64,000 nt of DNA from Agromyces atrinae (lineage in GTDB: Bacteria > Actinomycetota > Actinomycetes > Actinomycetales > Microbacteriaceae): NCBI RefSeq assembly GCF_013407835.1, contig NZ_JACCBI010000001.1, positions 2,108,001 through 2,172,000 of the forward strand, in the 5' to 3' direction. The notes under the pieces are model-generated. The model was not told the origin of the DNA. It worked only from the letters and a program-made list of their open reading frames with translations, and searched no databases. Of this stretch, positions 4,368 through 47,646 are shown one piece after another. The position numbers and the translations under genes are program-made. Every line of letters begins with the position of its first letter. The stretch's first letter is position 1.

Positions 4368-5261
4368 TCACCCGGTGCGGGTGCGCTGCACGGCGTCGAA
4401 GGTCGACTTGAGGGCGTCGACGGCGGCGTCGTAGTTCGACTGGGCGACACCGATGAAGAGGCAGTCGGCGACCATGAGCTGCGCGATGCGACTGCCGAGC
4501 GCGCCCGAGCGGAACTGCGTCTCGCGCGCCGCGGTCAACAGCACGACGTCCGCGTGCCGCACGAGCGCCGAGCTGCCGTGGTTCGTGATGGCGATCGTCT
4601 TCGCGCCGGAGGCCTGCGCGAGGCGCAGGAACTCGACGGTGTCGGCCGTCTCGCCCGAGTGCGAGATCGCGATGGCGACGGTGCCGGGCGTGAAGACGGC
4701 GGCCGCTGTCCAGGCCGCGTGACTGTCGGGCCACGTGAGCGCGACGCGGCCGATGCGGCTGAGCTTCCGCTGCAGGTCGAGCGCGACGATCGAGCCGGCG
4801 CCGACTCCGAAGGTGTCGGTGCGTGTCGAGCCCGCGACGAGGTCGACGGCACGGCGGAGCGCGTCGGTGTCGAGAGCCTGGGCGGTGTCGGAGATCGAGA
4901 GCGTCTCGGAGCGCGCGACCTTCGCGATGACGGCGTCGAGGTCGTCGTCGCGGTCGATGTCGCGCACCTCGTCGGGGAAGTCGGCGTTCTCGAGACGTTC
5001 ACGCAGCGATTCGCGCGTGAGGTCGAGGCGGAGATCCTGGAAGCGCGTGTACCCGATGCGCTGGTAGAAGCGCACGAGGGTCGTCGTCGACGTTCCCGCC
5101 GCGTCGCAGATCTCGGCCATCGACCGCGCGGCGAATCCGGCGGGGTCGTCGAGGATGAGTTCCGCGATGCGCCGTTCCGCGGGCCGCAGGCCCGGTAGAG
5201 CCGAGCGGATGCCGACGAGAACCGTCCGGGAATCGCGTTCGTTGCGCGTGTCCGACGCCAT
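4368..5261 (-). CDS. MurR/RpiR-family regulator of the muropeptide salvage operon
   Basis: A 297-residue protein with an N-terminal RpiR helix-turn-helix (about residues 10-85: LRPAERRIAELILDDPAGF, then AEICDAAGTSTTTLVRFYQRIGY) and a C-terminal SIS sugar-phosphate-binding domain (about 125-265, with GVGAGSIVALDLQRKL and AISHSGETADTVEF). Proteins of this family sense phosphosugars; E. coli MurR responds to MurNAc-6-P and represses murQ. The start at 5261 is chosen because a purine-rich ribosome site (GAGAGGAAG) precedes it. It faces the importer/MurQ operon across a 160-base gap, so it is the obvious candidate regulator. Whether it activates or represses is not visible. Confidence 0.88.
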   Translation of the reverse strand: MASDTRNERDSRTVLVGIRSALPGLRPAERRIAELILDDPAGFAARSMAEICDAAGTSTTTLVRFYQRIGYTRFQDLRLDLTRESLRERLENADFPDEVRDIDRDDDLDAVIAKVARSETLSISDTAQALDTDALRRAVDLVAGSTRTDTFGVGAGSIVALDLQRKLSRIGRVALTWPDSHAAWTAAAVFTPGTVAIAISHSGETADTVEFLRLAQASGAKTIAITNHGSSALVRHADVVLLTAARETQFRSGALGSRIAQLMVADCLFIGVAQSNYDAAVDALKSTFDAVQRTRTG

Positions 5262-5320
5262 GGTCTTCCTCTCCTCACGTGCTTCGCAGCCTAGGCCACA
5301 CATGTTTCCTCGAACCCGCG

Positions 5321-5348
5321 AGGTATAGAAGTTACATACTTGAAACCT
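5321..5348. promoter_or_regulatory. Candidate RpiR operator
   Basis: An imperfect palindrome with nested arms AGGT (5321-5324), AAGT (5329-5332), ACTT (5338-5341) and ACCT (5345-5348). It lies in the gap between the RpiR gene and the divergent operon and overlaps the predicted -35 of the operon promoter, as expected for a repressor site. Confidence 0.45.
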
Positions 5349-5369
5349 TAACGGGGAAATAAATAACCT
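5340..5369 (+). promoter_or_regulatory. Candidate promoter of the muropeptide operon
   Basis: A possible -35 box TTGAAA (5340-5345) and -10 box TAACCT (5364-5369) with an 18-base spacer, ending 52 bases before the substrate-binding protein start. This stretch is markedly AT-rich compared with its surroundings. Confidence 0.4.
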
Positions 5370-5421
5370 AAGGTAGTCGCAAGCCCCGGCCCGGCAGAGG
5401 GTCATCATCGCCAAGGAAGGT

Positions 5422-6981
5422 ATGAACATGACTCAACGCAAACGACGCGTGCAGGCCGGACTCGCGGCCCTCGGAGTCGCCACCGCGACCGCTCTCCTCG
5501 TGAGCGGGTGCACCGGCACGTCGACGGCCACGCCGAGCGGCACTCCGAACGCCGACGGCACCCTCGTGATCGGCGTCACGACCGACGCCAACACGCTCTA
5601 CCCGTGGACGACGACGCAGTTCCAGGCGACGAACGTGCTCCAGAACATCTACGGCACGCTCACCGAGTTCGACGAGAACCTCGAGGTCGTGCCCGGTCTC
5701 GCCGAGTCGTGGGAGACATCGGAAGACGGCCTCACCGTGACCTTCACGCTCCGCGAGGGCGTCACCTACTCGAACGGCGCCGCCTTCGACTCGGCCGACG
5801 TCGTCGCCTCGCTCACCGCGATCAAGAACCCCGACACGGCAGCCGTCTCGGCCACGAACCTCGCCTCGGTGAGCACGATCGAGGCCCCCGACGCGAGCAC
5901 CGTCGTGCTGACCCTCTCGGCTCCCGACGCCGCTCTCGTGTCGAAGCTCGCGCCCGTCACCATGGCGATCCTCGACTCCGACGACACCGCAGCGACCCTC
6001 GAGACGGCTCCCAACGGCACCGGCCCGTACATGCTCGACGAGCGGAAGCCGAACGAGTCGATCTCGCTCGTACGGAACACCGACTACTGGGGCGACACCC
6101 CGGGCCTCGGCGGCATCGAGTTCCGCGTCATCCCCGACGAGGCGGCGATCGTCTCGGCTCTCCAGTCGGGCAACGTGCAGATGGCCGTCTTCGACGACGC
6201 CCTCGTCGCCGACACGATCGGCGCCTCGGCGGAGGTCGCGAAGACCCCGCAGCTCAACTACCACGCGCTGCAGTTCAACTCGCGGAAGGCCCCGTTCGAC
6301 AACCTCGACCTGCGCCTCGCGATCCAGTGCGCGATCGACCGCCAGCAGGTGCTCGACACCGCCGCTCTCGGCGAGGGCGAAGTGACCGGCCCGATCACGT
6401 CGCCCGCATTCCTCTCCGACCCCGACGCCCGCCCGTGCCCCGAGGCCGACATCGAGACCGCCGAGAAGCACCTCGCCGACGCGGGCTACGCCGACGGCAT
6501 CACGATCGACGCGATCGTCATGCAGGACGGCTACTCGACCGCCGTCGCCGAGGCCGAGAACGTGCAGGCCCAGCTTGCCGAGATCGGCATCACGCTGAAC
6601 CTCGAGGTGCTCGAGTCGGGCGCCTACGTCGACCGCTGGGTCGCCGGCGACTTCGGCGCGGCCTTCGCCCTCAACGGCGGACAGCCCGACCCCGACGCCA
6701 TGTACGGCCGCTACTTCACGAGCACCGGCAATCTGAACGCCGTCGCCGGGTACAGCTCCGACACGCTCGACGCCCTCTTCGCGGCGGGCAAGGCGAGCAA
6801 CGACCTCGACGAGCGCAAGCAGATCTACGCGGATGTCTCGAAGGAACTCGAGGACAACGCCGTCTGGGTGTGGCTCTTCACGGGCTACAACTACACGGCG
6901 ACCGCGCCGAGCGTGCAGGGCTTCACGCCGCTGCCGAACGGTTCGCTGCAGTACCTGCGCGACACCACCATCACCGGCTGA
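5422..6981 (+). CDS. Opp/Dpp-family substrate-binding lipoprotein
   Basis: A 519-residue extracellular binding protein of the peptide/nickel importer class (SBP family 5). The N-terminus is a lipoprotein signal (positive start, hydrophobic stretch, lipobox LVSGC with Cys about residue 31). The rest matches the family: GTLVIGVTTDANTLYPW, a VPGLAESWE block, then TFTLREGVTYSNG. Length is typical. AAGGAAG precedes the start; ATG 5422 or 5428 are both possible. Members bind oligopeptides, and E. coli MppA/OppA bind murein tripeptide. As first gene of an operon with MurQ and AnmK, the ligand is probably a muropeptide or anhydro-muropeptide; this is inference. Confidence 0.88.
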   Translation: MNMTQRKRRVQAGLAALGVATATALLVSGCTGTSTATPSGTPNADGTLVIGVTTDANTLYPWTTTQFQATNVLQNIYGTLTEFDENLEVVPGLAESWETSEDGLTVTFTLREGVTYSNGAAFDSADVVASLTAIKNPDTAAVSATNLASVSTIEAPDASTVVLTLSAPDAALVSKLAPVTMAILDSDDTAATLETAPNGTGPYMLDERKPNESISLVRNTDYWGDTPGLGGIEFRVIPDEAAIVSALQSGNVQMAVFDDALVADTIGASAEVAKTPQLNYHALQFNSRKAPFDNLDLRLAIQCAIDRQQVLDTAALGEGEVTGPITSPAFLSDPDARPCPEADIETAEKHLADAGYADGITIDAIVMQDGYSTAVAEAENVQAQLAEIGITLNLEVLESGAYVDRWVAGDFGAAFALNGGQPDPDAMYGRYFTSTGNLNAVAGYSSDTLDALFAAGKASNDLDERKQIYADVSKELEDNAVWVWLFTGYNYTATAPSVQGFTPLPNGSLQYLRDTTITG

Positions 6982-7045
6982 CCGCGATTCGACACGGGTG
7001 GTGCGGGAGTCCGCTCCCGCACCACCGCCCCCTCCTGGAGAACCC

Positions 7046-8014
7046 ATGCGAAAACTGCTCGCGAATCCGCTCGTGCGGCGGATCGGCGGCGCGATACTGA
7101 CTCTCGTCGGAGTCGCCATCGCCGTCTTCATCATGCTGCGCGCCATTCCCGGCGACCAGATCACGGCGGCGTTCGGCACCGAGGCCGCCGCGCTCTCCCC
7201 CGAGCAGCGCGCAAGCCTCGAGGCGTACTACGGCCTCGACCAGCCGCTCATCGTGCAGTTCTTCACGTGGCTCGGCAGCCTGCTCACGGGAAACCTCGGC
7301 TTCTCGGCGCGAGCGCAGCAGAGCGTGCTCGAGATGACGGCGGCGGCGCTGCCCGTCACCCTCGAGCTCGCGCTCCTCTCGATCGTGCTCGCGTTCATCA
7401 TCGGCGTGCCGCTCGGCATGCTCTCGGCCTCGCGCCCCAACGGCTTCCGTGACTTCTTCGGCCAGGCCGTCGGCCTCGCCGGTCTCGGCATCCCCGCCTT
7501 CCTCCTTGCGACGACGCTCCTCGCCATCACCGCGACGAGCTTCGGCTTCAACCCGAACGGCCTCGGCTACGCCCGGCTCTTCGACGATCCGCTCCTGAAC
7601 CTCCAGCAGATGCTCATGCCGGCCCTCGTGCTCGGCTTCGGCATCGCCGCGCCGATCATGCGGACGACCCGCACGGCCGTGCTCGAGGTGCGTTCGCTCG
7701 ACTTCGTGCGCACCGCTCGCGCGAAGGGTGTTCCCCCGCGTCGCCTGCAGATCCATCACGTGCTGCGCAACGCCCTCGTGCCGATCGTCACCATGACGGG
7801 TCTGCAGTTCGGTTATCTCCTCGGCGGCGCCGTGGTCGTCGAGCAGATCTTCTCGCTGCCCGGCATCGGCCGCCAGGTGCTGCTCGGCATCAACCAGAAG
7901 GAGTTCGCGGTCGTGCAGAGCACGGTGCTCGTGATCGCCCTCCTCTTCGTCATCGTCAACCTCCTCACCGACCTGCTGTATCGGGTCATCGACCCCCGGG
8001 TGCGCGCATCATGA
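7046..8014 (+). CDS. ABC importer permease, DppB/OppB type
   Basis: A 322-residue inner-membrane permease with six helices. It starts MRKLLANPLVRRIGG, has the conserved N-terminal LRAIPGDQ motif and the EAA-type cytoplasmic loop around RTARAKGVPPRRLQIHHVLRNA that contacts the ATPase. A TGGAG ribosome site sits 5 bases upstream of ATG 7046. It follows the binding-protein gene by 64 bases and overlaps the next permease by 4 bases. With the gene at 8011 it forms the heteromeric channel of the importer. Confidence 0.9.
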   Translation: MRKLLANPLVRRIGGAILTLVGVAIAVFIMLRAIPGDQITAAFGTEAAALSPEQRASLEAYYGLDQPLIVQFFTWLGSLLTGNLGFSARAQQSVLEMTAAALPVTLELALLSIVLAFIIGVPLGMLSASRPNGFRDFFGQAVGLAGLGIPAFLLATTLLAITATSFGFNPNGLGYARLFDDPLLNLQQMLMPALVLGFGIAAPIMRTTRTAVLEVRSLDFVRTARAKGVPPRRLQIHHVLRNALVPIVTMTGLQFGYLLGGAVVVEQIFSLPGIGRQVLLGINQKEFAVVQSTVLVIALLFVIVNLLTDLLYRVIDPRVRAS

Positions 8015-8904
8015 CCGAGACCATCGCGCCGAACGGCGCCGAACGACGACTTCCCCGCGCGGGACGGAACCGCTCGCTGAGCGGCCTCCTCCGCAGCCCG
8101 AGCGGCCTCGCCGGGCTCATCATCACCGGCCTCCTCGCGGTACTCGCGATCCTCTCGCTCCTCGGCTGGCTGCCCTACGATCCGGCCGCGCAGAACGCCG
8201 CGGCGCGACTGCAGCCGCCGAGCATGGAGCACTGGTTCGGCACCGACCAGTTCGGCCGCGACATCTTCTCGCGCACGGCCTCGGGCGTCGGCAACTCCGC
8301 GCTCGTCGCCGTCGTCGCTGTGACGTTCGCCGCGGTCGTCGGCACGATCGGCGGCATCACGTCGGGCTACCTGCGCGGCGTCTCCGACAGTGTCATCGGC
8401 GGACTCAGCAACGTGCTGTTCGCGTTCCCGCCGCTGCTGCTCGCACTGACCCTCGCGTCGGTCTTCACCCGCAACTGGTTCACGATCGCCGTCGCGATCG
8501 CCGTCGTTTACACGCCGATCTTCGTGCGTGTGACGCGCGGCCCCGTGCTCTCGCTGCGCGAGATCGACTACGTGAACGCGGCGAAGGCGACCGGCATGCG
8601 CGCGGGTTCGATCATGGCGCGGCACATCCTGCCGAACATCACCGGCATCATCATCGTGCAGGTCACGCTCTCGCTCTCGTGGGCCGTGCTCACCGAAGCG
8701 TCGCTGAGCTTTCTCGGCCTCGGAACACCGCCGCCCGCGGCATCCCTCGGCTCGATGATCTTCGATGCCCGCACCCTCGTGACCGTCGCGCCGTGGACCC
8801 TGTTCGCGCCCGGCACCATCCTCATCCTGCTCGTGATCGGCCTGAACCTCCTCGGCGACGGCTTGCGCGATGCGCTCGACCCGTCCAGAAGGGGACGCCG
8901 ATGA
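8011..8904 (+). CDS. ABC importer permease, DppC/OppC type
   Basis: A 297-residue permease with about six helices. It has the OppC-type hallmark EHWFGTDQFGRDIFSR (about residues 72-88) and the EAA loop YVNAAKATGMRAGSIMARHILPN. ATGA overlaps join it to both neighbours (8011-8014 and 8901-8904), indicating translational coupling. It pairs with the upstream DppB-type permease and the fused ATPase at 13206-14822. Confidence 0.9.
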   Translation: MTETIAPNGAERRLPRAGRNRSLSGLLRSPSGLAGLIITGLLAVLAILSLLGWLPYDPAAQNAAARLQPPSMEHWFGTDQFGRDIFSRTASGVGNSALVAVVAVTFAAVVGTIGGITSGYLRGVSDSVIGGLSNVLFAFPPLLLALTLASVFTRNWFTIAVAIAVVYTPIFVRVTRGPVLSLREIDYVNAAKATGMRAGSIMARHILPNITGIIIVQVTLSLSWAVLTEASLSFLGLGTPPPAASLGSMIFDARTLVTVAPWTLFAPGTILILLVIGLNLLGDGLRDALDPSRRGRR

Positions 8905-9815
8905 CGACGACAGGCACCGGCCTCGAAGGCCTCACGACCGAAGCGGTCGATCCGCGATTCGATGCGATCGACCTCATGTCGATCTCCGAGCTCGCCGCTC
9001 TCATGAACGACAACGACCACGTCGTGCCGACGGCGGTGCGCTCGGCCTTGCCGCAGATCGTGCCCGCGCTCGAAGCGGCGACCGCACGCATGCAGCAGGG
9101 CGGCCGGCTCGTCTACGTCGGCGCGGGAACGCCGGGGCGCATCGGCGTGCTCGACGCCTCCGAGTGCCCGCCGACGTTCTCGACGCCGCCCGAGCTCGTC
9201 TTCGCGGTCATCGCGGGCGGGCCCGAGGCGATCGCGGGTGCGGTCGAAGGCGCAGAGGATGACGCGGAGGCCGGCGCCGCATCGATGGATGAGACGCAGA
9301 TCGGCCCCCTCGACACCGTCGTGGGCATCGCGTCGAGCGGCCGCACACCCTTCGTCGTCGCGGCCGTGCGCCGTGCCCGCGAACGCGGCGCCCTCACCGT
9401 CGGGCTCTCGTGCAACTCCGACACCGCGCTGAGCGCCGAGGCGGAGCACGGCATCGAGGTGCTCGTCGGCCCCGAGCTCGTGAGCGGGTCGACGCGGCTG
9501 AAGGCCGGCACGGCTCAGAAGCTCGTGCTCAACATGTTCTCGACGATCCTCATGATCCAGCTCGGCAAGACGTACGGAAACCTCATGGTCGACGTCACGG
9601 CCTCGAACGCCAAGCTCAAGCTGCGCGCGACGGGTATCGTCGCCCGCATCACCGGTGTCGACGTCGACACGGCGCGCGAGGCTCTCGAGGAGTCGGGGTA
9701 CATCGTCAAGCGCGCGGTGCTGAAGATCGCGCGCGGCATGGACGCCGACCGCGCCGATTCGGCACTCCTCGAGGCGGGCGGCCGCCTCCGAATCGCTCTG
9801 GAGGCGAATCGATGA
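8901..9815 (+). CDS. murQ: N-acetylmuramic acid 6-phosphate etherase
   Basis: A 304-residue SIS-domain enzyme that splits the lactyl ether of MurNAc-6-P to give GlcNAc-6-P and D-lactate. The diagnostic block GAGTPGRIGVLDASECPP (about residues 74-91) carries the catalytic Glu equivalent to E. coli Glu83, and AVEGAED (about 114-120) the second acidic residue. GIASSGRTPFV and the STRLKAGTAQKLVLNM region also match. Length is normal (E. coli about 298). It overlaps the permease upstream and anmK downstream by 4 bases each. The D-lactate it releases fits the D-lactate dehydrogenase-like gene at the operon end. Confidence 0.95.
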   Translation: MTTTGTGLEGLTTEAVDPRFDAIDLMSISELAALMNDNDHVVPTAVRSALPQIVPALEAATARMQQGGRLVYVGAGTPGRIGVLDASECPPTFSTPPELVFAVIAGGPEAIAGAVEGAEDDAEAGAASMDETQIGPLDTVVGIASSGRTPFVVAAVRRARERGALTVGLSCNSDTALSAEAEHGIEVLVGPELVSGSTRLKAGTAQKLVLNMFSTILMIQLGKTYGNLMVDVTASNAKLKLRATGIVARITGVDVDTAREALEESGYIVKRAVLKIARGMDADRADSALLEAGGRLRIALEANR

Positions 9816-10972
9816 GAATCCTCGGCATGATCTCGGGCACCTCGCACGACGGCATCGACGTCGCCGTGGTCGACCTGGTCGAGCGAGACGGCACTCTCGA
9901 ACTCGCACTGCGCCACCGCGACGCGGTCGCCTACGAGCCGGGCCTCCGCTCCCGCATCATCGCGGCGCTGCCCCCGGCATCCGTCGACCTCGCCGAGGTC
10001 TGCGCGCTCGACACCCTCATCGGTCAGGCGTTCGCCGAGGCCGCGGCGGCCGCGTGCGACGCGGCGGGAGCCGTCGACCTCATCGTCTCGCACGGCCAGA
10101 CGGTGTTCCACTGGGTCGAGGGCGACCACGCCCTCGGCACGCTGCAGCTCGGACAGCCCGCGTGGATCGCCGAGCGCACGGGCGTCGCCGTCGTCTCCGA
10201 CGTGCGCTCGCGCGACATCGCCGCGGGCGGCCACGGTGCTCCGCTCGCGTCGACGATCGACGCGCTGCTGCTCGCCGGGCGGCCCGGCCGCCCCGCCGCT
10301 CTCAACCTCGGCGGCATCTCGAACGCGACCGTCGTCGACCCCGAGTCGGTGCGCGCGTGGGACATCGGTCCCGCGAACGCCCTGCTCGACGCCGTGATCG
10401 TCGACCGGTCGGCCCACCCCGCGGGGTACGACGACGGCGGAGCCCTGGCCGCAGCCGGCACGGTCGACGAGGCCCTGCTCGCCGTGCTGCTCGAGGAGCC
10501 GTACTACCGGGTCGCTCCGCCGAAGAGCACGGGCAAGGAGCTCTTCCACCTCGACTACGTGAACGACGCCCTGCGCCGCAGCGGCCGGGAGGACATCGCG
10601 ACGAACGACCTCCTCGCGACGCTCGCGCGACTCACGATCGTCACCGTCGCCGATGCCCTCGTGGCCGACGGCGTGACCGAGATCTTCGTCTCGGGCGGCG
10701 GGGCGCACAACCCCGTGCTGCTCGGCGGCATCGCCGAACTCACCGGCGCGATCCTCGCCCCGACCGACGCCCTCGGCCTGCCCGGCGACGACAAAGAGGC
10801 CGTGCTCATGGCCGTCATCGGCTGGATGACGGTGCACGGCGTGCCCTCCTCGATCCCCACGGCCACGGGTGCCCGCGGCTCGCGCCTGCTCGGCTCGATC
10901 ACGCCCGGCGCACGCCCGCTCGCGTTCCCGGCGCCCGTCACGGCGCCGACGGCTCTCCGGGTGGTCGACTGA
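9812..10972 (+). CDS. anmK: Anhydro-N-acetylmuramic acid kinase
   Basis: A 386-residue ASKHA-fold kinase that opens the 1,6-anhydro ring of anhydroMurNAc and phosphorylates it to MurNAc-6-P, the substrate of MurQ. The signature near the N-terminus is MISGTSHDGID (usually SGTSMDGID; here His replaces Met). ALNLGGISNAT and PKSTGKELFH are also characteristic. Length is normal. It overlaps murQ by 4 bases. AnhydroMurNAc arises from lytic transglycosylases, so its presence suggests that anhydro-muropeptides, own or foreign, are a substrate of this operon. Confidence 0.95.
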   Translation: MRILGMISGTSHDGIDVAVVDLVERDGTLELALRHRDAVAYEPGLRSRIIAALPPASVDLAEVCALDTLIGQAFAEAAAAACDAAGAVDLIVSHGQTVFHWVEGDHALGTLQLGQPAWIAERTGVAVVSDVRSRDIAAGGHGAPLASTIDALLLAGRPGRPAALNLGGISNATVVDPESVRAWDIGPANALLDAVIVDRSAHPAGYDDGGALAAAGTVDEALLAVLLEEPYYRVAPPKSTGKELFHLDYVNDALRRSGREDIATNDLLATLARLTIVTVADALVADGVTEIFVSGGGAHNPVLLGGIAELTGAILAPTDALGLPGDDKEAVLMAVIGWMTVHGVPSSIPTATGARGSRLLGSITPGARPLAFPAPVTAPTALRVVD

Positions 10973-10975
10973 CCG

Positions 10976-12079: not shown

Positions 12080-13209
12080 CGAACCTCGACGCACGCGCGA
12101 CGGCCGCGGCGACGGCGCTCACGACGATCGACGCGCCGCACCCGCCGCCCGGAGCGGTCGTCGCGCTCTCGATCGGCGAATCCATCGGAGCCGCGGCGGT
12201 CGGCAGCGCCGACCTCGCGACGGGCGAGCGGATGACGCGGGCGACCGTTCACGACCTCGCATCGGTCAGCAAGCTCCTGACGACGACCGCCCTCCTCCGC
12301 CTCGTCGACGCCGGGGCGATCTCGCTCGACTCCACAGTCGGCGAGCTGCTCGGCGACGGCCCGATCGCCGACCGCACGGTGCGTCAGCTCCTCGAGCACC
12401 GCGGCGGACTCGCGCCGTGGTGGCCGCTCTACCTCGATCCGGCCGCGGCCGATGACCCGATCGGTGCCGTGCTCGCGCGCGCATCCGAGGCCGCCGCCGA
12501 TACGGCTCGCGTGTACTCCGACCTCGGATTCCTCGTGCTCGGCGCCCTTGTCGCCCGGGCCGGCGGAGCCCCCTTCGCCGACGTCGTGCGCCGCGAGGTG
12601 CTGGGGCCGCTCGGGCTCACGGGCGTCACACCCGGCCCGACGACGGAGGCCGCCCACGCTGCGGCGAGCGCCGACGGCGACGCGATCGAACGCTCGATGG
12701 TCGAGGACGGGGTGCCCTACCCCGTGCCCTTCGGCGTCGAGGGATTCACGTGGCGCACGGAGACGCTGCGCGGCGCCGTGAACGACGGCAACGCGTTCCA
12801 CGCCGTCGGCGGACCCGCCGGCCACGCGGGCTGGTTCGCGACCGTCGACGACATGCTCACGCTCGGCCGCGCCCTCGCCGCCGATCCCGGCGAGCACGGG
12901 CTCTGGAGCCGCGCGACGCGCGACCGGTTCCTCGCCGTCTCGGCCGACCCGGCTCAGGCGCTCGGCTTCCGGTACTACCCCGCGGGCGTCATCCACCCCA
13001 CGCGCACCCTGTGGGGGCACCCCGGATTCACGGGCACCGCCCTCGCGTTCGCTCCCGCGGACGAAGTGTACGAACCTCTTGCTCTCGCCCTCGCCGCCAA
13101 TCGACTGCACGGGCGATCGGCGCCGACGCGCGACCGACTCGCACCGACCGAACTCCTTCTCTCTGCCGCGACCCGCGCGGCCGTCGACCCTTCGGAGATG
13201 ACCCCATGA
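12076..13209 (+). CDS. Beta-lactamase-fold serine hydrolase, possible muropeptide amidase
   Basis: A 377-residue class C beta-lactamase-like enzyme: SVSK at residues 63-66 is the SxxK active-site motif, YSD at about 147-149 takes the place of YxN, and WGHPGFTG near residue 320 that of the KTG-like triad. No signal peptide, so it is cytoplasmic. Bacillus subtilis has a related enzyme, AmiE (YbbE), beside nagZ and murQ that removes the peptide from MurNAc; the position here between the epimerase and the ATPase fits the same role. It could instead act as an esterase or D-aminopeptidase. It overlaps both neighbours by 4 bases. Confidence 0.8.
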   Translation: MTNLDARATAAATALTTIDAPHPPPGAVVALSIGESIGAAAVGSADLATGERMTRATVHDLASVSKLLTTTALLRLVDAGAISLDSTVGELLGDGPIADRTVRQLLEHRGGLAPWWPLYLDPAAADDPIGAVLARASEAAADTARVYSDLGFLVLGALVARAGGAPFADVVRREVLGPLGLTGVTPGPTTEAAHAAASADGDAIERSMVEDGVPYPVPFGVEGFTWRTETLRGAVNDGNAFHAVGGPAGHAGWFATVDDMLTLGRALAADPGEHGLWSRATRDRFLAVSADPAQALGFRYYPAGVIHPTRTLWGHPGFTGTALAFAPADEVYEPLALALAANRLHGRSAPTRDRLAPTELLLSAATRAAVDPSEMTP

Positions 13210-14822
13210 CCAGCACCCCTCTCCTCAGCGTTCGCGAGCTCCGCGTCACGTTCGACACGGGCTCCGGCCCCGTCGAAGCGGTGAAAGGCGTGTCGTTCGA
13301 CGTCGCGGCGGGCGAGACCGTCGCGATCGTGGGCGAGTCGGGATCGGGCAAGTCGACGATCGCGTCGAGCATCAACCGACTGCTCGCCGCCAACGGGCGC
13401 ATCTCGGGCGGCGAGATCGAGTTCGACGGCCGCGATCTCGTGCGCGCGACCGAGCGTCAGATGATCGAGCTGCGCGGGTCGGTCATCGGCTTCGTGCCGC
13501 AGGACCCGATGTCGAACCTCAACCCCGTGCACCGCGTCGGACGTCAGATCCAGGAGGCGCTCGAGGTGCACGGCCGTGCGCGCGGAGCCGACGCGCACAA
13601 GCAGGTCATCGAGCTGCTCGAACTCGTCGGCATCCCCGAGCCCGAGCGTCGCTTCGAGCAGTACCCGCACGAGTTCTCGGGCGGAATGCGCCAGCGCGCC
13701 CTCATCGCGATGGGTCTCGCGTGCCGCCCCGCCCTGCTCATCGCCGACGAACCGACGAGTGCCCTCGACGTCACGGTGCAGCGCCGCATCCTCGATCAGC
13801 TCGACACGCTCACAGCCGAACTCGGCACGGCCGTCGTGCTCATCACCCACGATCTCGCCCTCGCCGCCGAGCGCGCCGACCGCGTCGTCGTGATGTTCCG
13901 CGGCGACATCGTCGAGCAGGGCCCCGCCCAGCAGTTGCTCTCGGCGCCGCAGCACGAGTACACGAAGCAGTTGCTCGCCGCGGCCCCGAGCCTCACGACG
14001 GCGACGATCACCGAGCGCATCGAGCCCGGCACCGGCGAGGGGCCGGCGGAACTCGCACGCCTCGAGGGGCTCGGCAAGAAGTACCGCATGCGCGGCGGCG
14101 ACGATTTCTGGGCCGCGCGCGACGTGTCGTTCTCGATCCCCCGCGGCCGCACCGTCGCCGTCGTCGGCGAGTCGGGCTCGGGCAAGTCGACGACCGCCAA
14201 GCTCATGCTCGGCCTCGAGACGCCGTCCGAGGGGCGCGTCGTCATGCAGGGCAAGGACGTCGCGACGCTGAAGGGCCGGGAGCTCCTCGCCTTCCGTCGC
14301 ACCGTGCAGCCGGTGTTCCAGAACCCGTTCGCCTCGCTCGACCCGCGCTACACCGTCGAGGAGTCGATCGTCGAGCCGCTGCGCGTGCACCGCGTCGGCA
14401 GCCGTGACGACCGCCGACGCCGCATGTTCGATCTGCTCGATCGCGTCGCCCTGCCCGCGGAACTCGCCGACCGTCTGCCGCACGAGCTCTCGGGCGGTCA
14501 GCGTCAGCGCGTCGCGATCGCCCGTGCCCTCGCGCTCTCGCCCGATCTCGTCGTGCTCGACGAAGCGGTCTCGGCGCTCGACGTGCTCGTGCAGGCGCAG
14601 ATCCTCGACCTGCTCGCCGAGCTGCAGCGCGAGCTCGGCCTCAGCTACCTCTTCATCAGCCACGACCTCGCGGTCGTCAAGATGATCTCCCACGTCGTGC
14701 ACGTCATGCGCGCCGGTCGCATCGTCGAGAGCGGCACCCCGGCCGAGATCTTCGATGCTCCCCGCGACGAGTACACGCGCGAGCTGCTCGCCGCGATCCC
14801 CGGCGCCGGTCTCGCCGTCTGA
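13206..14822 (+). CDS. Fused double ATPase of the Opp/Dpp-type importer
   Basis: A 538-residue protein made of two complete ABC ATPases in one chain, equivalent to DppD and DppF joined. Each half has a Walker A of form GESGSGKST (about residues 41-49 and 323-331), a signature (FSGGMRQRALIAMGLA; LSGGQRQRVAIARALA), Walker B (LLIADEPTSALD; LVVLDEAVSALD) and a switch His. The second Walker B has Ala where Pro is usual (DEAVSALD), a common variant in DppF-like domains. It energises the permeases at 7046-8904 from the cytoplasm. The four catabolic genes between permeases and ATPase mean import and breakdown are encoded as one unit. Confidence 0.93.
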   Translation: MTSTPLLSVRELRVTFDTGSGPVEAVKGVSFDVAAGETVAIVGESGSGKSTIASSINRLLAANGRISGGEIEFDGRDLVRATERQMIELRGSVIGFVPQDPMSNLNPVHRVGRQIQEALEVHGRARGADAHKQVIELLELVGIPEPERRFEQYPHEFSGGMRQRALIAMGLACRPALLIADEPTSALDVTVQRRILDQLDTLTAELGTAVVLITHDLALAAERADRVVVMFRGDIVEQGPAQQLLSAPQHEYTKQLLAAAPSLTTATITERIEPGTGEGPAELARLEGLGKKYRMRGGDDFWAARDVSFSIPRGRTVAVVGESGSGKSTTAKLMLGLETPSEGRVVMQGKDVATLKGRELLAFRRTVQPVFQNPFASLDPRYTVEESIVEPLRVHRVGSRDDRRRRMFDLLDRVALPAELADRLPHELSGGQRQRVAIARALALSPDLVVLDEAVSALDVLVQAQILDLLAELQRELGLSYLFISHDLAVVKMISHVVHVMRAGRIVESGTPAEIFDAPRDEYTRELLAAIPGAGLAV

Positions 14823-14837
14823 CCCCGAGAGGACGAC

Positions 14838-15617
14838 ATGGAGCTCATCATCCTTCCGAGCCACGACGTCGACGCCGTGGCCGCTCGCCTCGTCGCCGAC
14901 GACCTGCGCGCCGCCTCCCCCGGCGTGCTCGGCGTCGCGACGGGATCGTCGCCCCTCGGCGTCTACGCGGCGCTCGAGCGGATGATCGCCGCGGGCGACC
15001 TCGACCTCTCGCGCACGCGCGCGTTCGCCCTCGACGAGTACGTGGGCATCCCCGCCGATCACCCCGAGAGCTATGCCGCCGTCATCCGCCGCGAGGTCGT
15101 CGAGCGGCTCGGCATGAACCCCGCGTTCGTGCGCGTCCCCGACGGCCGGGCCGACGACCTCGAGCTCGCGTGCGCCGAGTACGAGGCCGCGATCCGTCAC
15201 GCGGGCGGCATCGACGTGCAGATCCTCGGCATCGGCGCGAACGGGCACATCGGCTTCAACGAGCCGTCGTCATCCCTCGCCTCGCGCACCCGGGTCAAGA
15301 CCCTCACGCGAGCGACCCGCGAGGCGAACGCGCGCTTCTTCGACGACGTCGCCGACGTGCCGACCCACTGCCTCACGCAGGGCATCGGAACGATCCTCGA
15401 CGCGCAGCACCTCGTGCTCGTCGCGCGCGGCGAGGCGAAGGCCGAGGCGATCCGTCAGGCCGCCGAGGGCCCCGTATCGGCCCGTTGGCCGGCCTCCGCC
15501 CTGCAGCTGCACCCGAACGTCACGCTCGTCATCGACGACGACGCCGCATCGCACCTCGAACTCGGCGACTACTACCGCGAGACCTACCGGTTGAAACCCG
15601 CCGTCGAGGATCGATGA
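14838..15617 (+). CDS. nagB: Glucosamine-6-phosphate deaminase
   Basis: A 259-residue enzyme turning GlcN-6-P into fructose-6-P and ammonia. The catalytic motif FALDEYVG (Asp66) and the GIGANGHIGFNEP loop are intact. Ribosome site GAGAGGA precedes ATG 14838. It follows the ATPase gene by 15 bases and overlaps the MFS gene by 4. It completes the amino-sugar branch started by MurQ, although a GlcNAc-6-P deacetylase (nagA), needed between MurQ and NagB, is not in this window. Confidence 0.94.
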   Translation: MELIILPSHDVDAVAARLVADDLRAASPGVLGVATGSSPLGVYAALERMIAAGDLDLSRTRAFALDEYVGIPADHPESYAAVIRREVVERLGMNPAFVRVPDGRADDLELACAEYEAAIRHAGGIDVQILGIGANGHIGFNEPSSSLASRTRVKTLTRATREANARFFDDVADVPTHCLTQGIGTILDAQHLVLVARGEAKAEAIRQAAEGPVSARWPASALQLHPNVTLVIDDDAASHLELGDYYRETYRLKPAVEDR

Positions 15618-16819
15618 CGACCGGCACCGCGGTGGGCAGCCGGCGCGCCGGGGTGCTCCTGCTCGCGGCGTTCGCGGGGCTCGGAGCGACGGCCGCGAGC
15701 ATCCCCTCAGCGCTTCCCGCCCTCGCCGCGGCGCTCGACGCCGATCTCGCCATCGCGCCGTCGGGGCTCTTCGCGGGGCTCCTCGTCGGCGTGCTCTCGT
15801 CGCGCGTGCTCCTCACCCGGTTCGCGACGGCGCGCGTGCTCGCGCTCGGCAGCGCCGCCCAGGCCGTCGGCGTCGTGGGCGTGCTGCTCGCGGGAAGCGC
15901 CGGCCTCGTCATCCTCTTCGCCGTCGTCGCGGGCGTCGGCTTCGGACTCTCGGAGGCTGCGGGCAGTCTCGCCGCGAAGCAGCAGGCGACGGGGTCGGCG
16001 ACGACTCCGCTCGCCGCGCTCACCGCTGCGGTCGCCATCGTCGCCGCGACCCTGCCGTTCGCCGTCGCGGCCTCGCCCGCCGTCGCCCTCGGCGTCGTCG
16101 GTGCGGCGCACGCGATCACCGCGGTGCTGCTCGCGATCGGTCTGCCCCGGGTCGCACCCGTGACGGATGACGGTCGCCGCGTGTCCGGCCCGGCCCCGCG
16201 TCACCGCTCGACGATCGTGATCGTCGGCGTCGCCCTCGTCGTCACGGTGGGCGTCGAGACGATCTTCTCCGGCTGGTCGGCCGTGATCCCCGCCGAGGCC
16301 CTCGAGCTCGACGCGAGCACGGCGGCCCTCGGCACGACCGTGTTCTGGTCTCTCATGACGGTCGGCCGGTTGCTCGGCTGGCTCGCTCTCGCGCGCGGAG
16401 TCACCGCGACGGTGCTCGGTGCGGTTCTCGCTGCTCTCGCCGCCCTGGCCCTCGTCGCCGCCGCGCTGCTCCGCACCGATGCCCCGCTCGCGGCCCTCGC
16501 CGGCGCGATGGTCGCCGTCGTCGCGATCGCTCCCCTGTACTCGCTGCTCATCGGGTCGGCCCTCGACCGCGCCGACCCGGCCGACGCGTCGCGCCTCATC
16601 GGGGTGCTCGTCGCGGCCGGTGCCGTCGGCGGGGCCGTCATCCCCCTCGGTGCGCTGTTCGTGAGCGGGGCACCGAGCGCTCCCCTCGTCTTCGCCCTCG
16701 CGGGTGTCGGCTGCGCCGTGCTCGGAGCGCTCTTCGCCGTCATCCGCCGCTCGCCCGCGTCGACCGGCTCGCCCGCGTCGACCGGCTCACCCGACAGCCC
16801 CCGAGGAGACCATGCCTGA
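15614..16819 (+). CDS. Major facilitator superfamily transporter
   Basis: A 401-residue membrane protein with about 12 helices, very rich in Ala, Val and Leu, and a short hydrophilic C-terminal tail with two copies of SPASTG (about residues 380-391). It overlaps nagB by 4 bases and the D-lactate dehydrogenase-like gene by 8 bases, so it belongs to the same operon. The substrate is unknown; export or uptake of a sugar, peptide or lactate linked to muropeptide turnover is a guess from context. Confidence 0.82.
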   Translation: MTTGTAVGSRRAGVLLLAAFAGLGATAASIPSALPALAAALDADLAIAPSGLFAGLLVGVLSSRVLLTRFATARVLALGSAAQAVGVVGVLLAGSAGLVILFAVVAGVGFGLSEAAGSLAAKQQATGSATTPLAALTAAVAIVAATLPFAVAASPAVALGVVGAAHAITAVLLAIGLPRVAPVTDDGRRVSGPAPRHRSTIVIVGVALVVTVGVETIFSGWSAVIPAEALELDASTAALGTTVFWSLMTVGRLLGWLALARGVTATVLGAVLAALAALALVAAALLRTDAPLAALAGAMVAVVAIAPLYSLLIGSALDRADPADASRLIGVLVAAGAVGGAVIPLGALFVSGAPSAPLVFALAGVGCAVLGALFAVIRRSPASTGSPASTGSPDSPRGDHA

Positions 16820-19643
16820 GGCCGCCACCCTGCCCGTGCTCGACGCCGCGATCCTCGGCGAGGCCACGCGCGTCTCGACACGCGCCCTCGACCGGTTCGC
16901 GCTCTCGCACGATGCGTCGCACTACCGGCTCGTGCCGCGCGCCGTCGTCACCCCGCAGGACGCGGCGGGCGTCGCACGCGTCTTCGCCGCCGCCCAGCAG
17001 GCGGGGCTGCCGATCACGTTCCGGTCGGGCGGCACGAGCCTCTCGGGCCAGGGCGTCACCGACGGCGTGCTCGTCGACACCCGCTCCGCGTTCCGCCGCA
17101 TCGACATCGGCCCCGAGGGGCGCACGGTGCGCGTGCAGCCGGGCGCGACGGTGCGCCAGGTCAACGCGCGACTCGGTCGGCACGGACGGAAGCTCGGGCC
17201 CGACCCGGCGAGCGAGATCGCGTGCACGATCGGCGGCGTCGTCGCGAACAACTCGAGCGGCATGGCGTGCGGCATCGAGCAGAACACGTACCGCACGATC
17301 CGCTCGATGGTGCTCGTGCTGCCGAGCGGAACCGTGATCGACACCGCTCAGCCCGATGCTCGCGAGCGATTTGCCGCGGCAGAGCCCGACCTGCACGACG
17401 GGCTCCTCGCCCTCCGCGAGCGCCTCCTCGCCGACCCGACGCAGGTCGACGTCGTGCGGCGCCAGTTCTCGATGAAGAACACGATGGGCTACGGCATCAA
17501 CGCCCTGCTCGACTTCAGCGAGCCCCTCGACATCCTGACCCACCTCGTCGTCGGCAGCGAGGGCACGCTCGCGTTCGTCGCCGAGGCGACGTTCGACACG
17601 GTCGAGGTGCTGCCCGCGGTCGCGACGGGACTCCTCGTCTTCCCGACGCTCTCCGACGCGACGGGCGCGCTGCCGGCCCTCGTCGACGCCGGCCTCGCGA
17701 CGATCGAGCTCATGGATGCCGCGTCGCTGCGAGTCGCCCAAGCGGCCGCCGATGCGCCGACCGAGATCCGCGACATCACGATCGCCGACCACGCCGCGCT
17801 CCTCGTCGAGTTCCACGCGGCGAGCGCCGACGCCCTCGCCGAGCGCATCGCGGCGACGCACGATCTGTTCGCGGCGCTCCCGCTCGCGAGTGCGCCCGAA
17901 CTGACATCCGATGCCGATCGCCGCGCCGCGCTCTGGCACGTGCGGAAGGGGCTCTACACCGCCGTCGCGGGAGCCCGCCCGTCAGGCACGACCGCCCTGC
18001 TCGAAGACATCGTCGTGCCCGTCGACCGGCTGCTGCCCGCGTGCGAGCGCCTCATCGAGCTGTTCGCCGAGCACGGCTACGAGGGCTCCGTCATCTTCGG
18101 GCACGCCAAGGACGGCAACGTGCACTTCCTGCTCAACGAGCGCTTCGAGGACCCGGCGCTCCTCGCGCGCTACGAGCGCTTCACCGCCGACCTCGTCGAC
18201 CTCGTGCTGGGGCTCGGCGGGTCGCTCAAAGCCGAGCACGGCACGGGTCGCATCATGGCCTCGTTCGTGCGTCGGCAGTACGGCGACGAACTGTACGACA
18301 TCATGCGGGCCGTCAAGCGGCTGTGCGATCCGACCGGCATCCTGAACCCCGGCGTCGTGCTCACCGACGACGATCGCGCCTACCTCAGCGACCTCAAGCT
18401 CGTGCCCACCGTCGAGGCCGAGGTCGACCGCTGCGTCGAGTGCGGCTACTGCGAGCCAACGTGCCCGAGCAAGGACCTCACGCTGACGCCGCGACAGCGC
18501 ATCGGCCTGCGTCGTGACATGGCGATGGCGGATGCCGCGGGCGAACGTGCCCTCGCCGCCGAACTGCGCGACGACTACGACTACGACGGCGTGCAGACGT
18601 GCGCCGTCGACGGCATGTGCGCGATCGCGTGCCCCGTCGACATCAACACGGGCGACCTCGTGCGGCGGCTGCGCGCCGAGAACCGCAACCCCGTGCTGAA
18701 CGCGGGCTGGGGCGCGGCCGCGAAGGCGTGGTCTCCCGTGACGCGCGTCGGTGCGGTCGCCCTCGACATCGCGAAGGCCGTTCCCACTCCCCTCGTGCGC
18801 GCCGCGACCACCGTGGGTCGCGCCGTGCTCGGCGCCGACGTCGTGCCGGCCTACACCGACGTGCTGCCGGGCGGCGGCCATGCCCGTCCGAAGCCGGGCG
18901 GCGACCCGGCGACGGCCGATGCGGTCTTCTTCGCGGCGTGCATCGGCACGATGTTCGGCCCCGAGGAGGGCGGAATCGGGGCGACCGCCGCGTTCCTCCG
19001 CCTCGCCGAGCGCGCGGGCGTCTCGCTCGTCGTGCCCGAGGGTCACGGCTCGCTCTGCTGCGGAACCCCGTGGAAGTCGAAGGGCTTCCTCGACGGCTAC
19101 CGGTCGATGACCGATCGCGTGCTTCCGGCCCTGCTCGCCGCGAGCGACGGCGGGCGACTGCCGATCGTCTGCGACGCCGCCTCGTGCACCGAAGGCCTCG
19201 AGACGATGCAGTCGATCGCCGCATCGGCCGCGGGCCTCGCCCCCGAGCTGCGCTTCGTCGACGCGACCGAGTTCGTGCGCGACCGCATGCTCGATCGTCT
19301 CGAGGTCACGTCGCGGGCGTCATCCGCCGTCGTCCACCGCACGTGCTCGACGACCGCGCTCGGCGTCAACGGGGCGATCGACGACATCGCCGCCGCGGTC
19401 GCCGAGTCGGTGCACATCCCCGATGAGTGGGGCTGCTGCGCCTACGCGGGCGATCGTGGCCTGCTGCACCCCGAGCTCACGGCGTCGGCGACGGCGCGCG
19501 AGGCCACCGAGGTCGTGTCGGAGCAGTACGACCTGCACCTCTCGGCGAACCGCACGTGCGAACTCGGCATGACCGAGGCGACGGGCCGCCCCTACCGACA
19601 TGTGCTCGAGGCGCTCGAAGAGGCGACGCGGGCGCGCGTGTAG
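16812..19643 (+). CDS. FAD and Fe-S D-lactate dehydrogenase-like protein
   Basis: A 943-residue three-part oxidoreductase. Residues about 35-260 are a PCMH/VAO-type FAD domain (TFRSGGTSLSGQGVTDGVL; GGVVANNSSGMACG), 265-520 the FAD-oxidase C-terminal domain (FGHAKDGNVHFLL; KAEHGTGR), followed by an Fe-S unit with CxxCxxCxxxC at 541-551 and a second cysteine set at 597, 603 and 607, then two CCG-type domains (LCCGTPWKSKG; WGCCAYAGDRG). This is the architecture of membrane-associated D-lactate or 2-hydroxyacid dehydrogenases that feed the quinone pool. As MurQ in the same operon makes D-lactate, that is the likely substrate. Last gene of the operon. Confidence 0.88.
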   Translation: MPEAATLPVLDAAILGEATRVSTRALDRFALSHDASHYRLVPRAVVTPQDAAGVARVFAAAQQAGLPITFRSGGTSLSGQGVTDGVLVDTRSAFRRIDIGPEGRTVRVQPGATVRQVNARLGRHGRKLGPDPASEIACTIGGVVANNSSGMACGIEQNTYRTIRSMVLVLPSGTVIDTAQPDARERFAAAEPDLHDGLLALRERLLADPTQVDVVRRQFSMKNTMGYGINALLDFSEPLDILTHLVVGSEGTLAFVAEATFDTVEVLPAVATGLLVFPTLSDATGALPALVDAGLATIELMDAASLRVAQAAADAPTEIRDITIADHAALLVEFHAASADALAERIAATHDLFAALPLASAPELTSDADRRAALWHVRKGLYTAVAGARPSGTTALLEDIVVPVDRLLPACERLIELFAEHGYEGSVIFGHAKDGNVHFLLNERFEDPALLARYERFTADLVDLVLGLGGSLKAEHGTGRIMASFVRRQYGDELYDIMRAVKRLCDPTGILNPGVVLTDDDRAYLSDLKLVPTVEAEVDRCVECGYCEPTCPSKDLTLTPRQRIGLRRDMAMADAAGERALAAELRDDYDYDGVQTCAVDGMCAIACPVDINTGDLVRRLRAENRNPVLNAGWGAAAKAWSPVTRVGAVALDIAKAVPTPLVRAATTVGRAVLGADVVPAYTDVLPGGGHARPKPGGDPATADAVFFAACIGTMFGPEEGGIGATAAFLRLAERAGVSLVVPEGHGSLCCGTPWKSKGFLDGYRSMTDRVLPALLAASDGGRLPIVCDAASCTEGLETMQSIAASAAGLAPELRFVDATEFVRDRMLDRLEVTSRASSAVVHRTCSTTALGVNGAIDDIAAAVAESVHIPDEWGCCAYAGDRGLLHPELTASATAREATEVVSEQYDLHLSANRTCELGMTEATGRPYRHVLEALEEATRARV

Positions 19644-21025: not shown

Positions 21026-21075
21026 CGTTCTCCTCATCGAGTGCGGTGCGCCCGCGTCATCCGCGGCGACCATAT

Positions 21076-47607: not shown

Positions 47608-47646
47608 GTGTGTTCCTTGTGGTGAGGGTGCATCGAGCGGATCGGC

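What the first reader, a model, noticed from the sequence alone, without database searches (positions are those of the whole stretch)
4368..19643. Self-contained muropeptide import and catabolism operon ending in a D-lactate dehydrogenase
One regulator plus 11 genes, nearly all joined by 4-base overlaps, combine an Opp-type importer with MurQ, AnmK, a dipeptide epimerase, a serine hydrolase, NagB, an MFS carrier and a D-lactate dehydrogenase-like Fe-S flavoprotein. Seen: gene identities and coupling. Known: AnmK makes MurNAc-6-P and MurQ gives GlcNAc-6-P plus D-lactate. Inferred: import of (anhydro)muropeptides and full use of sugar, lactate and peptide. I am not aware of a described actinobacterial operon with all these parts, including the lactate oxidation step.
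Basis: partly seen in the sequence, partly recalled or inferred. Interest (0 to 1): 0.82.

Follow-up and report, generated by a model that had tools for sequence, protein, structure and literature searches.

The report
Actinobacterial cell-wall-fragment uptake and burning operon
A soil bacterium carries one operon that looks able to import broken-down bacterial cell wall and digest its sugar, peptide and lactate parts; the import core recurs across very different actinobacteria, and a lactate-oxidising enzyme appears to have joined such gene sets several separate times.

Summary
The operon is real: a divergent RpiR regulator (5261-4368, -) and 11 + strand genes (5422-19643). MurQ, AnmK and NagB pass curated cut-offs. 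Coupling is overstated: 6 of 10 junctions are 4-base overlaps (9 of 27 elsewhere in the window). "Self-contained" is wrong: NagA lies 0.75 Mb away and no S66 LD-carboxypeptidase match was found. Comparison separates core from add-ons. The Opp-type importer recurs in 55 of 80 AnmK loci; of these MurQ 47, serine hydrolase 52, RpiR 51, but MFS 23, epimerase 20, D-lactate dehydrogenase-like flavoprotein 9, NagB 4. The flavoprotein is the interesting add-on: within 15 kb of murQ in 13 of 50 genomes of the order holding both (0.48 expected), in five operon layouts; the tree forces at least four gains or losses of the 'this-operon' label. Its catalytic residues fit LDHD-type D-lactate dehydrogenase. 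Best reading: an Opp-type transporter imports (anhydro)muropeptides, whose sugar, peptide and D-lactate are then used. Importer substrate, serine hydrolase reaction and MFS role are inferred. A new variant of known MurNAc catabolism.

The parts
4368..5261 (-). RpiR-family (HTH_6 + SIS) regulator, MurR-like, divergent
   Evidence: PF01418 and PF01380 over cut-off; below NCBIfam MurR cut-off (115 vs 408); start; present in 51 of 55 related operons
5262..5421 (.). divergent intergenic region, probable operator/promoter; holds AAGTTACATACTT
   Evidence: 30 of 55 such regions (window's included) share AAAAGTAC against a shuffled maximum of 7, but the window's own region lacks that 8-mer
5422..6981 (+). 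solute-binding lipoprotein, family 5 (Opp/Dpp/Nik type), lipobox-like LVSGC with Cys30
   Evidence: PF00496 E 2e-88; Cys30 nearly invariant in 14 orthologues; lipobox rule recalled
7046..8014 (+). ABC permease B
   Evidence: Opp/Dpp permease families; 71-87 % identity in the related operons
8011..8904 (+). ABC permease C
8901..9815 (+). MurQ, MurNAc-6-phosphate etherase
   Evidence: TIGR00274 354 bits, cut-off 302
9812..10972 (+). AnmK, anhydroMurNAc kinase
   Evidence: NF007146 526 bits, cut-off 440; PF03702 E 7e-103
10976..12079 (+). dipeptide epimerase-like protein (enolase superfamily)
   Evidence: best solved relative 1jpm, L-Ala-D/L-Glu epimerase, E 3.8e-68, with KIK, second Lys and DxD aligned; curated cut-offs not met
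12076..13209 (+). serine hydrolase of the beta-lactamase/PBP4B superfamily, probably cytosolic; proposed MurNAc-peptide amidase or peptidase
   Evidence: PF00144; best NCBIfam match PBP4B E 2e-20, below cut-off; SxxK, YSD and HxG kept in 15 of 15; no signal peptide visible in the translation
13206..14822 (+). fused DppD-DppF ABC ATPase
   Evidence: PRK11308 499 bits, cut-off 408
14838..15617 (+). NagB, glucosamine-6-phosphate deaminase
   Evidence: TIGR00502 272 bits, cut-off 237
15614..16819 (+). MFS carrier of a small actinobacterial family, substrate unknown
   Evidence: weak PF07690; model pLDDT 89 with MFS fold; in 23 of 55 related operons
16812..19643 (+). FAD/Fe-S D-2-hydroxyacid dehydrogenase (GlcD-GlcF fusion type), probable D-lactate dehydrogenase
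   Evidence: PF01565, PF02913, Fer4; five catalytic residues of mouse LDHD kept

Best explanation
An RpiR-controlled operon for taking up and using peptidoglycan fragments. A lipoprotein-dependent Opp-type ABC importer brings in (anhydro)MurNAc-peptides; the serine hydrolase splits the peptide from the sugar or trims it inside the cell; the epimerase turns the D-Glu-containing dipeptide into a usable L-L form; AnmK makes MurNAc-6-P; MurQ gives GlcNAc-6-P and D-lactate; NagA (encoded elsewhere) and NagB lead to fructose-6-P; the flavoprotein oxidises D-lactate to pyruvate. Shown by sequence: gene kinds, recurring core, linkage of the dehydrogenase with murQ beyond chance, its catalytic residues. 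Inferred: importer substrate, serine hydrolase reaction, MFS role, single transcript, induction by MurNAc-6-P.
For: Curated cut-offs met for MurQ, AnmK, NagB. Of 80 AnmK-seeded loci 55 have SBP, PermB and PermC; of these MurQ 47, serine hydrolase 52, ATPase 53, RpiR 51. AnmK is there by construction, but loci found through the importer instead also have it: 7 of 7 Agromyces found by SBP and 8 of 8 genomes opened of 19 found by PermB (MurQ in 7 of 8). An anhydro-sugar kinase beside the importer points to anhydro cargo. All 7 Agromyces genomes with the importer have the dehydrogenase against 10 of 53 without (p 5e-5), adjacent in 6 of 7. MurQ and dehydrogenase within 15 kb in 13 of 50 genomes, 0.48 expected; 12 of 49 without the window's genome. 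Five layouts. At least four label changes on the tree. A relative sits beside a lactate permease gene (L171). LDHD catalytic residues kept in 33 of 33. Engineered C. glutamicum with MurP/MurQ accumulates D-lactate from MurNAc and its makers suggest more dld (PMC6165865, passages), the very gap that this gene would fill.
Against: No ligand, expression or growth data. The binding protein belongs to a family with many other ligands (peptides, nickel, haem, opines), and its model was too poor to use (pLDDT 58.7). The dehydrogenase was not found near 46 of 55 core operons; in G065 it is on another contig than the importer; the window copy's nearest relatives (74-77 %) in four Agromyces sit away from murQ. 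Without the importer genomes, MurQ and dehydrogenase co-occurrence in Agromyces is not significant (p 0.16). Relatives are not independent and no test is corrected for phylogeny. Mur-linked and other dehydrogenases share the same catalytic residues, so these do not single out the mur-linked ones. The tree counts gains and losses together.
Confidence: 0.68

Rival explanations
1. The importer carries only free wall peptides or ordinary oligopeptides; MurNAc or anhydroMurNAc enters by another route (for example the MFS carrier), and the operon merely co-expresses two salvage systems.
For: Family 5 binding proteins have many peptide-binding members; NCBIfam ranks permeases and ATPase among peptide/nickel types; the MFS carrier is the nearest thing to a sugar permease in the operon; some murQ loci of the order have CUT1 sugar importers or an SSS symporter instead.
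Against: In loci found through the importer, AnmK is beside it in all that I opened (7 of 7 Agromyces; 8 of 8 opened of 19 PermB genomes). The MFS carrier was not found in 32 of 55 AnmK-seeded core operons.
Confidence: 0.2
2. The flavoprotein oxidises another 2-hydroxyacid (glycolate, D-2-hydroxyglutarate, a sugar acid) and its place beside murQ is incidental.
For: The family is broad; relatives also sit beside genes that look like IlvD, sugar kinase and SorC/ABC genes (read from translations); it misses the curated cut-offs of GlcD and YdiJ, and no lactate dehydrogenase model is passed either.
Against: 13 of 50 genomes with murQ within 15 kb against 0.48 expected, in five layouts; hydrophobic side pocket by alignment to LDHD; Ala, as in LDHD, and not the Tyr of GlcD at position 363 in 32 of 33.
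Confidence: 0.15
3. The operon serves recycling of the cell's own wall turnover products and not feeding on foreign wall material.
For: AnmK belongs to the known cytoplasmic processing of anhydromuropeptides released by wall turnover (PMC5061867, passages).
Against: Patchy distribution (7 of 60 Agromyces; PermB at 74 % identity or more in 11 of 394 genomes of the class, own included) and an enzyme that would burn the lactate look like an optional food route. Not exclusive of the best reading.
Confidence: 0.3

Closest known systems
E. coli murQP-yfeW divergon with murR (PMC5061867, passages)
   Same: MurQ, divergent RpiR-type regulator, a PBP4B-superfamily serine hydrolase in the operon; same MurNAc-6-P to GlcNAc-6-P plus D-lactate step
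   Different: E. coli imports MurNAc by the PTS protein MurP; here an Opp-type ABC importer and AnmK stand instead, plus epimerase, NagB, MFS and dehydrogenase
B. subtilis murQ-murR-murP-amiE-nagZ-ybbC cluster (PMC5061867, passages)
   Same: MurQ with RpiR-type regulator and a MurNAc-L-Ala amidase
   Different: sequential extracellular digestion, then MurP; no AnmK, ABC importer or dehydrogenase in the cluster as listed there
YejBEF-YepA of Agrobacterium tumefaciens (PMC9790009, passages)
   Same: an ABC transporter with binding protein that imports anhydromuropeptides in place of AmpG
   Different: alphaproteobacterial; the words actinobacteria and Gram-positive do not occur in its main text; YepA was not compared with the lipoprotein here
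S. coelicolor SCO4305-SCO4308 murQ cluster and M. smegmatis murQ (PMC5061867; PMC13041923; passages)
   Same: actinobacterial MurQ-dependent recycling
   Different: importer unknown: the mycobacterial preprint speaks of an unknown transporter; 'D-lactate' does not occur in its main text
Engineered MurNAc use in C. glutamicum (PMC6165865, passages)
   Same: MurQ-released D-lactate linked in thought with a D-lactate dehydrogenase (Dld)
   Different: heterologous murP/murQ; Dld is a separate host enzyme, not part of a mur operon
Shewanella Dld SO_1521 beside lldP (PMC5432575, passages) and mouse LDHD (PMC10589216, passages)
   Same: D-lactate oxidation by FAD enzymes; a relative of the window enzyme also sits beside a lactate permease gene (L171)
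   Different: not tied to MurNAc use; the SO_1521 sequence was not compared here

Membership tests
MurQ etherase | score over TIGR00274 cut-off | tested here: met
   354 vs 302 bits
AnmK | score over an NCBIfam AnmK equivalog cut-off | tested here: met
   NF007146 525.7 vs 440
NagB | score over TIGR00502 cut-off | tested here: met
   271.6 vs 236.9
L-Ala-D/L-Glu epimerase | catalytic lysines and DxD motif (roles recalled), closest solved relative an epimerase | tested here: met
   alignment to 1jpm, E 3.8e-68
L-Ala-D/L-Glu epimerase | curated equivalog cut-off | tested here: not met
   NF041118 172 vs 500; NF011708 128 vs 343; so filed only as epimerase-like
MurR regulator | NCBIfam MurR equivalog cut-off | tested here: not met
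   115 vs 408; filed only as RpiR family
PBP4B (YfeW) | NCBIfam PBP4B cut-off | tested here: not met
   73 vs 385; superfamily only
MurNAc-L-Ala amidase AmiE | sequence relation to B. subtilis AmiE and amidase activity | not tested
   AmiE sequence not obtained; activity needs an assay
D-lactate dehydrogenase (LDHD-like) | Arg347, His398, His405, Glu442, His443 and a hydrophobic side pocket | tested here: met
   window protein aligned to LDHD chains 8jdc/8jdb; the five kept in 33 of 33, pocket Y, A, L, L/M
D-lactate dehydrogenase | activity on D-lactate | not testable with these tools
   needs an assay
D-2-hydroxyglutarate dehydrogenase | Thr390, Asn443, Lys401 pocket | tested here: inconclusive
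   residues from PMC10589216; the alignment to 6lpn was not among the five printed, so equivalence with Y382 and L440 is my inference through LDHD
GlcD glycolate oxidase | TIGR00387 cut-off | tested here: not met
   188 vs 568
E. coli-type mur divergon | MurP PTS importer in the operon | tested here: not met
   no PTS family among the listed matches of the 12 genes
MFS | 12-helix MFS fold | tested here: met
YejBEF-YepA muropeptide importer | YepA fingerprint residues and anhydromuropeptide import | not tested
   YepA sequence not fetched; import needs an experiment

The most novel reading that the evidence does not exclude
Actinobacteria have their own widespread, patchily spread importer of (anhydro)muropeptides, an Opp-type ABC system welded to AnmK, an intracellular serine amidase and usually MurQ; lineages have repeatedly and independently bolted a FAD/Fe-S D-lactate dehydrogenase onto this and other MurNAc operons, so that all three parts of a muropeptide (sugar, peptide, lactyl group) are burned.
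Probability: 0.55. Interest if true: 0.74.

Novelty: new variant of a known kind. Interest (0 to 1): 0.6.

Why it matters
How actinobacteria take up muropeptides or MurNAc is open: a 2026 mycobacterial preprint (PMC13041923, passages) still assumes an unknown transporter. This operon gives a concrete, testable candidate that recurs from Agromyces and Microbacterium to Nonomuraea, Pseudonocardia, Jiangella and Desertimonas. The linkage of a D-lactate dehydrogenase with murQ in several layouts suggests that the lactyl ether, usually treated as a by-product, is a carbon source worth keeping; engineered MurNAc use without it leaves D-lactate behind (PMC6165865, passages). It also offers gene sets for growth on cell-wall waste.

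Tried and rejected
Selenocysteine idea: several dehydrogenase hits were flagged '1 TGA inside'. BLAST alignments over 20 loci held no internal stop, and reading L152, L153 and L155 showed plain terminal stops. For L162 and L158 my fixed-frame reading was out of frame or orientation and tells nothing, so there the rejection rests alone.

MFS substrate from structure: the model is good, but its matches are generic MFS transporters (sialin, D-galactonate, oxalate, monocarboxylate, glucose-6-P types), so no substrate follows. No solved relative by sequence at E 0.01. Binding-protein structure: model too poor, not searched. The shared 8-mer AAAAGTAC (30 of 55 divergent regions) is not in the window's own region, so no operator is claimed for the window. 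In a small genome (L190) a stand-alone GlcD-like gene lies convergent to the operon; at 27 % identity over half the length it is not counted as the same enzyme.

Circularity mended on checking: the census was seeded with AnmK, so AnmK's constancy there proves nothing; importer-seeded loci are cited instead. A comparison with D2HGDH was downgraded to inconclusive.

Literature: ten searches, of which eight bear on the operon (not 76, 77). Four listings were cut (20 of 28; 62: 20 of 98; 92: 12 of 34; 93: 12 of 19). No listed title or abstract start described this operon or a murQ-linked D-lactate dehydrogenase; passages of PMC2909200, PMC9689679, PMC12680351 and PMC6165865 were checked too and describe neither. 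That library lacks most subscription papers.
Full report
What is there. The window lies in a chromosome that is very probably Agromyces: a same-genus genome, G035, holds a contig of exactly 682103 bases, the length of the Agromyces sp. H66 contig of locus L133. The 12 genes are an RpiR-family regulator (5261-4368, -) and, on the + strand, binding lipoprotein, two permeases, MurQ, AnmK, dipeptide epimerase-like protein, serine hydrolase, fused ABC ATPase, NagB, MFS carrier and FAD/Fe-S dehydrogenase, ending at 19643. Six of ten junctions are 4-base overlaps; 9 of 27 other same-strand junctions called in the window are too, so the coupling is normal for this genome. A GH30 gene follows convergently at 21073-19649.

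Pathway completeness. AnmK, MurQ and NagB pass curated cut-offs. The missing NagA is at G000:C1:1367559-1368668, over its cut-off (250 vs 225.65 bits), about 0.75 Mb away, so the operon is not self-contained. No match to the S66 LD-carboxypeptidase domain PF17676 was found in the genome (0 matches; the control rang in 6 of 14 genomes), and seven GH3 matches lie outside the operon, any of which may or may not be a NagZ (one of them is inside the window, near 46420-47331). The epimerase aligns best to the L-Ala-D/L-Glu epimerase 1jpm, with KIK, the second lysine and DxD aligned (the roles of these residues are recalled); it misses the curated cut-offs. The serine hydrolase keeps SxxK, YSD and HxG in 15 of 15 sequences, has no visible signal peptide, and has PBP4B as best NCBIfam match, below cut-off; PBP4B is encoded in the E. 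coli murQ operon (PMC5061867, passages).

Core and add-ons. Of 80 AnmK loci from named genomes (the best 80 of 275 found), 55 carry the binding protein and both permeases. Of these 55: RpiR 51, serine hydrolase 52, ATPase 53, MurQ 47, MFS 23, epimerase 20, dehydrogenase 9, NagB 4 (identity thresholds were set in the script; five of the 55 loci are 19 kb or shorter and flanks are at most 10 kb, so some absences may be false). They come from Microbacterium (16), Nonomuraea (9), Agromyces, Cryobacterium, Mycetocola, Nesterenkonia, Arthrobacter, Sphaerisporangium, Pseudonocardia, Phytoactinopolyspora, Jiangella, Cellulomonas, Georgenia, a Streptomyces, Propionibacteriaceae and Desertimonas among others. 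The other 25 of 80 lack the importer in the stretch held or are cut short. AnmK is present there by construction. Seeding with the importer instead: all 7 of 60 Agromyces genomes with the binding protein have AnmK and MurQ beside it. PermB at E 1e-100 occurs in 19 of 394 genomes of the class, 11 at 74 % identity or more (own genome included) and 8 at 51-60 %; I opened 8 of the 19 (G000, G081, G154, G259, G165, G306, G540, G602), all 8 with AnmK and 7 with MurQ. Two of these, G540 and G602 (unnamed, 1.8 and 1.3 Mb, local GC 48 and 45 %), keep MurQ, AnmK, epimerase and serine hydrolase on one strand with two separate ATPases. The distribution is thus wide and patchy.

The dehydrogenase. All 7 Agromyces genomes with the importer have it, against 10 of 53 without. 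It is adjacent in 6 of 7 and on another contig in G065; it is downstream in the window but divergent, behind RpiR, in the five others, with the MFS gene between in four of the five (not found in G035). Without those 7 genomes, MurQ and dehydrogenase presence are not significantly linked in Agromyces (7 of 27 vs 3 of 26, p 0.16). In the order (248 genomes), 77 have the dehydrogenase, 89 have MurQ, 50 both (the tool scored only the top 3 dehydrogenase candidates per genome, so 77 is a lower bound). In 13 of those 50 the two lie within 15 kb, with 0.48 expected for random placement (12 of 49 without the window's genome). Relatedness is not corrected for. Reading the loci of all 13 shows five layouts: A, this operon (G000, G081, G259); B, AnmK-SSS symporter-MurQ-BadF kinase-dehydrogenase (G044, G085, G102, G147, G173, G241); C, MurQ-CUT1 importer-BadF kinase-dehydrogenase (G004, G022); D, RpiR-dehydrogenase, with MurQ-AnmK-GH3-CUT1 on the other strand (G285); E, MurQ near GH3, NamZ, RpiR and dehydrogenase (G227). 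Pfam was run on single examples of the BadF kinase, SSS symporter, GH3, CUT1 binding protein and NamZ; the rest was read from the translations. Layout A with the dehydrogenase also occurs in Microbacterium halotolerans, Mycetocola, three Cryobacterium and a Sphaerisporangium.

A tree of 33 dehydrogenases puts the layout-A enzymes in separate places: four changes of the label are needed, four are forced by well-supported branches, and 0 of 500 shuffles need so few. Gains and losses are counted together, so the number of recruitments is not fixed. The window's own copy groups with copies of G074, G003, G024 and G030 that lie away from murQ, whereas the copies in other Agromyces and Mycetocola operons group near the window genome's second copy (L165, G000:C1:2198228-2201011). 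So different members of the family fill the slot in different operons, at different places in the operon, which I read as repeated recruitment. The rows are a hand-picked sample.

Substrate of the dehydrogenase. Against mouse LDHD (PMC10589216, passages), Arg347, His398, His405, Glu442 and His443 are kept in 33 of 33, and the side pocket reads Tyr, Ala, Leu and Leu/Met (one Phe, one Pro), which is hydrophobic. It seems unlike the Thr/Asn/Lys set given for D2HGDH, but that comparison was not made directly. Mur-linked and other copies share these residues, so they do not single out the mur-linked ones. One relative (L171) directly follows an L-lactate permease gene (PF02652 E 4e-132), with a GntR regulator gene nearby. 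Others lie by sugar-acid-like genes (read from translations), so some members may have other substrates. In C. glutamicum engineered with murP and murQ, D-lactate accumulates from MurNAc (PMC6165865, passages), so a coupled oxidase would have a use.

Importer and MFS. The binding protein belongs to SBP family 5, whose solved members bind peptides, nickel, haem, opines and murein peptide (by molecule name); sequence alone does not give the ligand. That AnmK sits beside the importer in every importer-seeded locus opened suggests an anhydro-sugar-containing cargo. The MFS carrier belongs to a small family whose named members are in Microbacterium, Agrococcus and Leifsonia, some called sugar MFS transporter or fucose permease; the fold matches are generic. 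It stands beside the dehydrogenase in several operons but also occurs without it in many Microbacterium loci, so it is not simply part of lactate use.

Regulation. In 55 divergent RpiR-SBP regions (window and two near-identical Agromyces included) the 8-mer AAAAGTAC occurs in 30, against at most 7 for the best 8-mer in 100 shuffles; relatedness is not corrected for, and the window's region has AAGTTACATACTT instead.

Verdict. The operon is a new variant of known MurNAc catabolism. What looks new is the recurring Opp-type importer-AnmK core in actinobacteria and the linkage of a D-lactate dehydrogenase with murQ in several layouts; no description of either was seen in eight searches of an open-access library (listings partly cut) or in the passages checked.

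Noticed in passing
L165 8728-11616 (-), G000:C1:2198228-2201011: The same genome has a second FAD/Fe-S dehydrogenase, 59 % identical, beside genes that read like a SorC-type regulator and CUT1-type ABC parts; it is closer to the enzymes in other Agromyces muropeptide operons than the window copy is.
   Followed up: partly
L049, L180, L181, L182, L183, L185: Another murQ operon type: AnmK, sodium:solute symporter, MurQ, BadF-type kinase and the dehydrogenase, in families f9 and f12; it would fit import of a free sugar.
   Followed up: partly
L184 8262-17375: MurQ, GH3-like gene, NamZ exo-muramidase, RpiR-like gene and the dehydrogenase together in one locus.
   Followed up: partly
L189, L190: The muropeptide operon in small (1.8 and 1.3 Mb) actinobacterial genomes with local GC of 48 and 45 %; in L190 combined with a CUT1-type sugar importer and next to a stand-alone GlcD-like gene. 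Taxon not identified.
   Followed up: partly
L132 11217-11753; proteins P0082, P0091, P0093: A GNAT acetyltransferase gene lies between AnmK and the serine hydrolase in L132, and GNAT domains are fused to the hydrolase in three database proteins; role unexplained.
   Followed up: no
window 19649-21073 (-): GH30 family glycosidase gene convergent to the operon end.
   Followed up: no
window 42776-50908 (-): A probable sugar-use operon: ORFs that read like a binding protein and two permeases with two large enzymes, one matching GH3 (G000:C1:2154420-2155331).
   Followed up: no
intergenic RpiR-SBP regions of 55 loci: Shared AAAAGTAC (30 of 55) and TGTTACAT (16 of 55) elements, candidate regulator or promoter sites.
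   Followed up: partly
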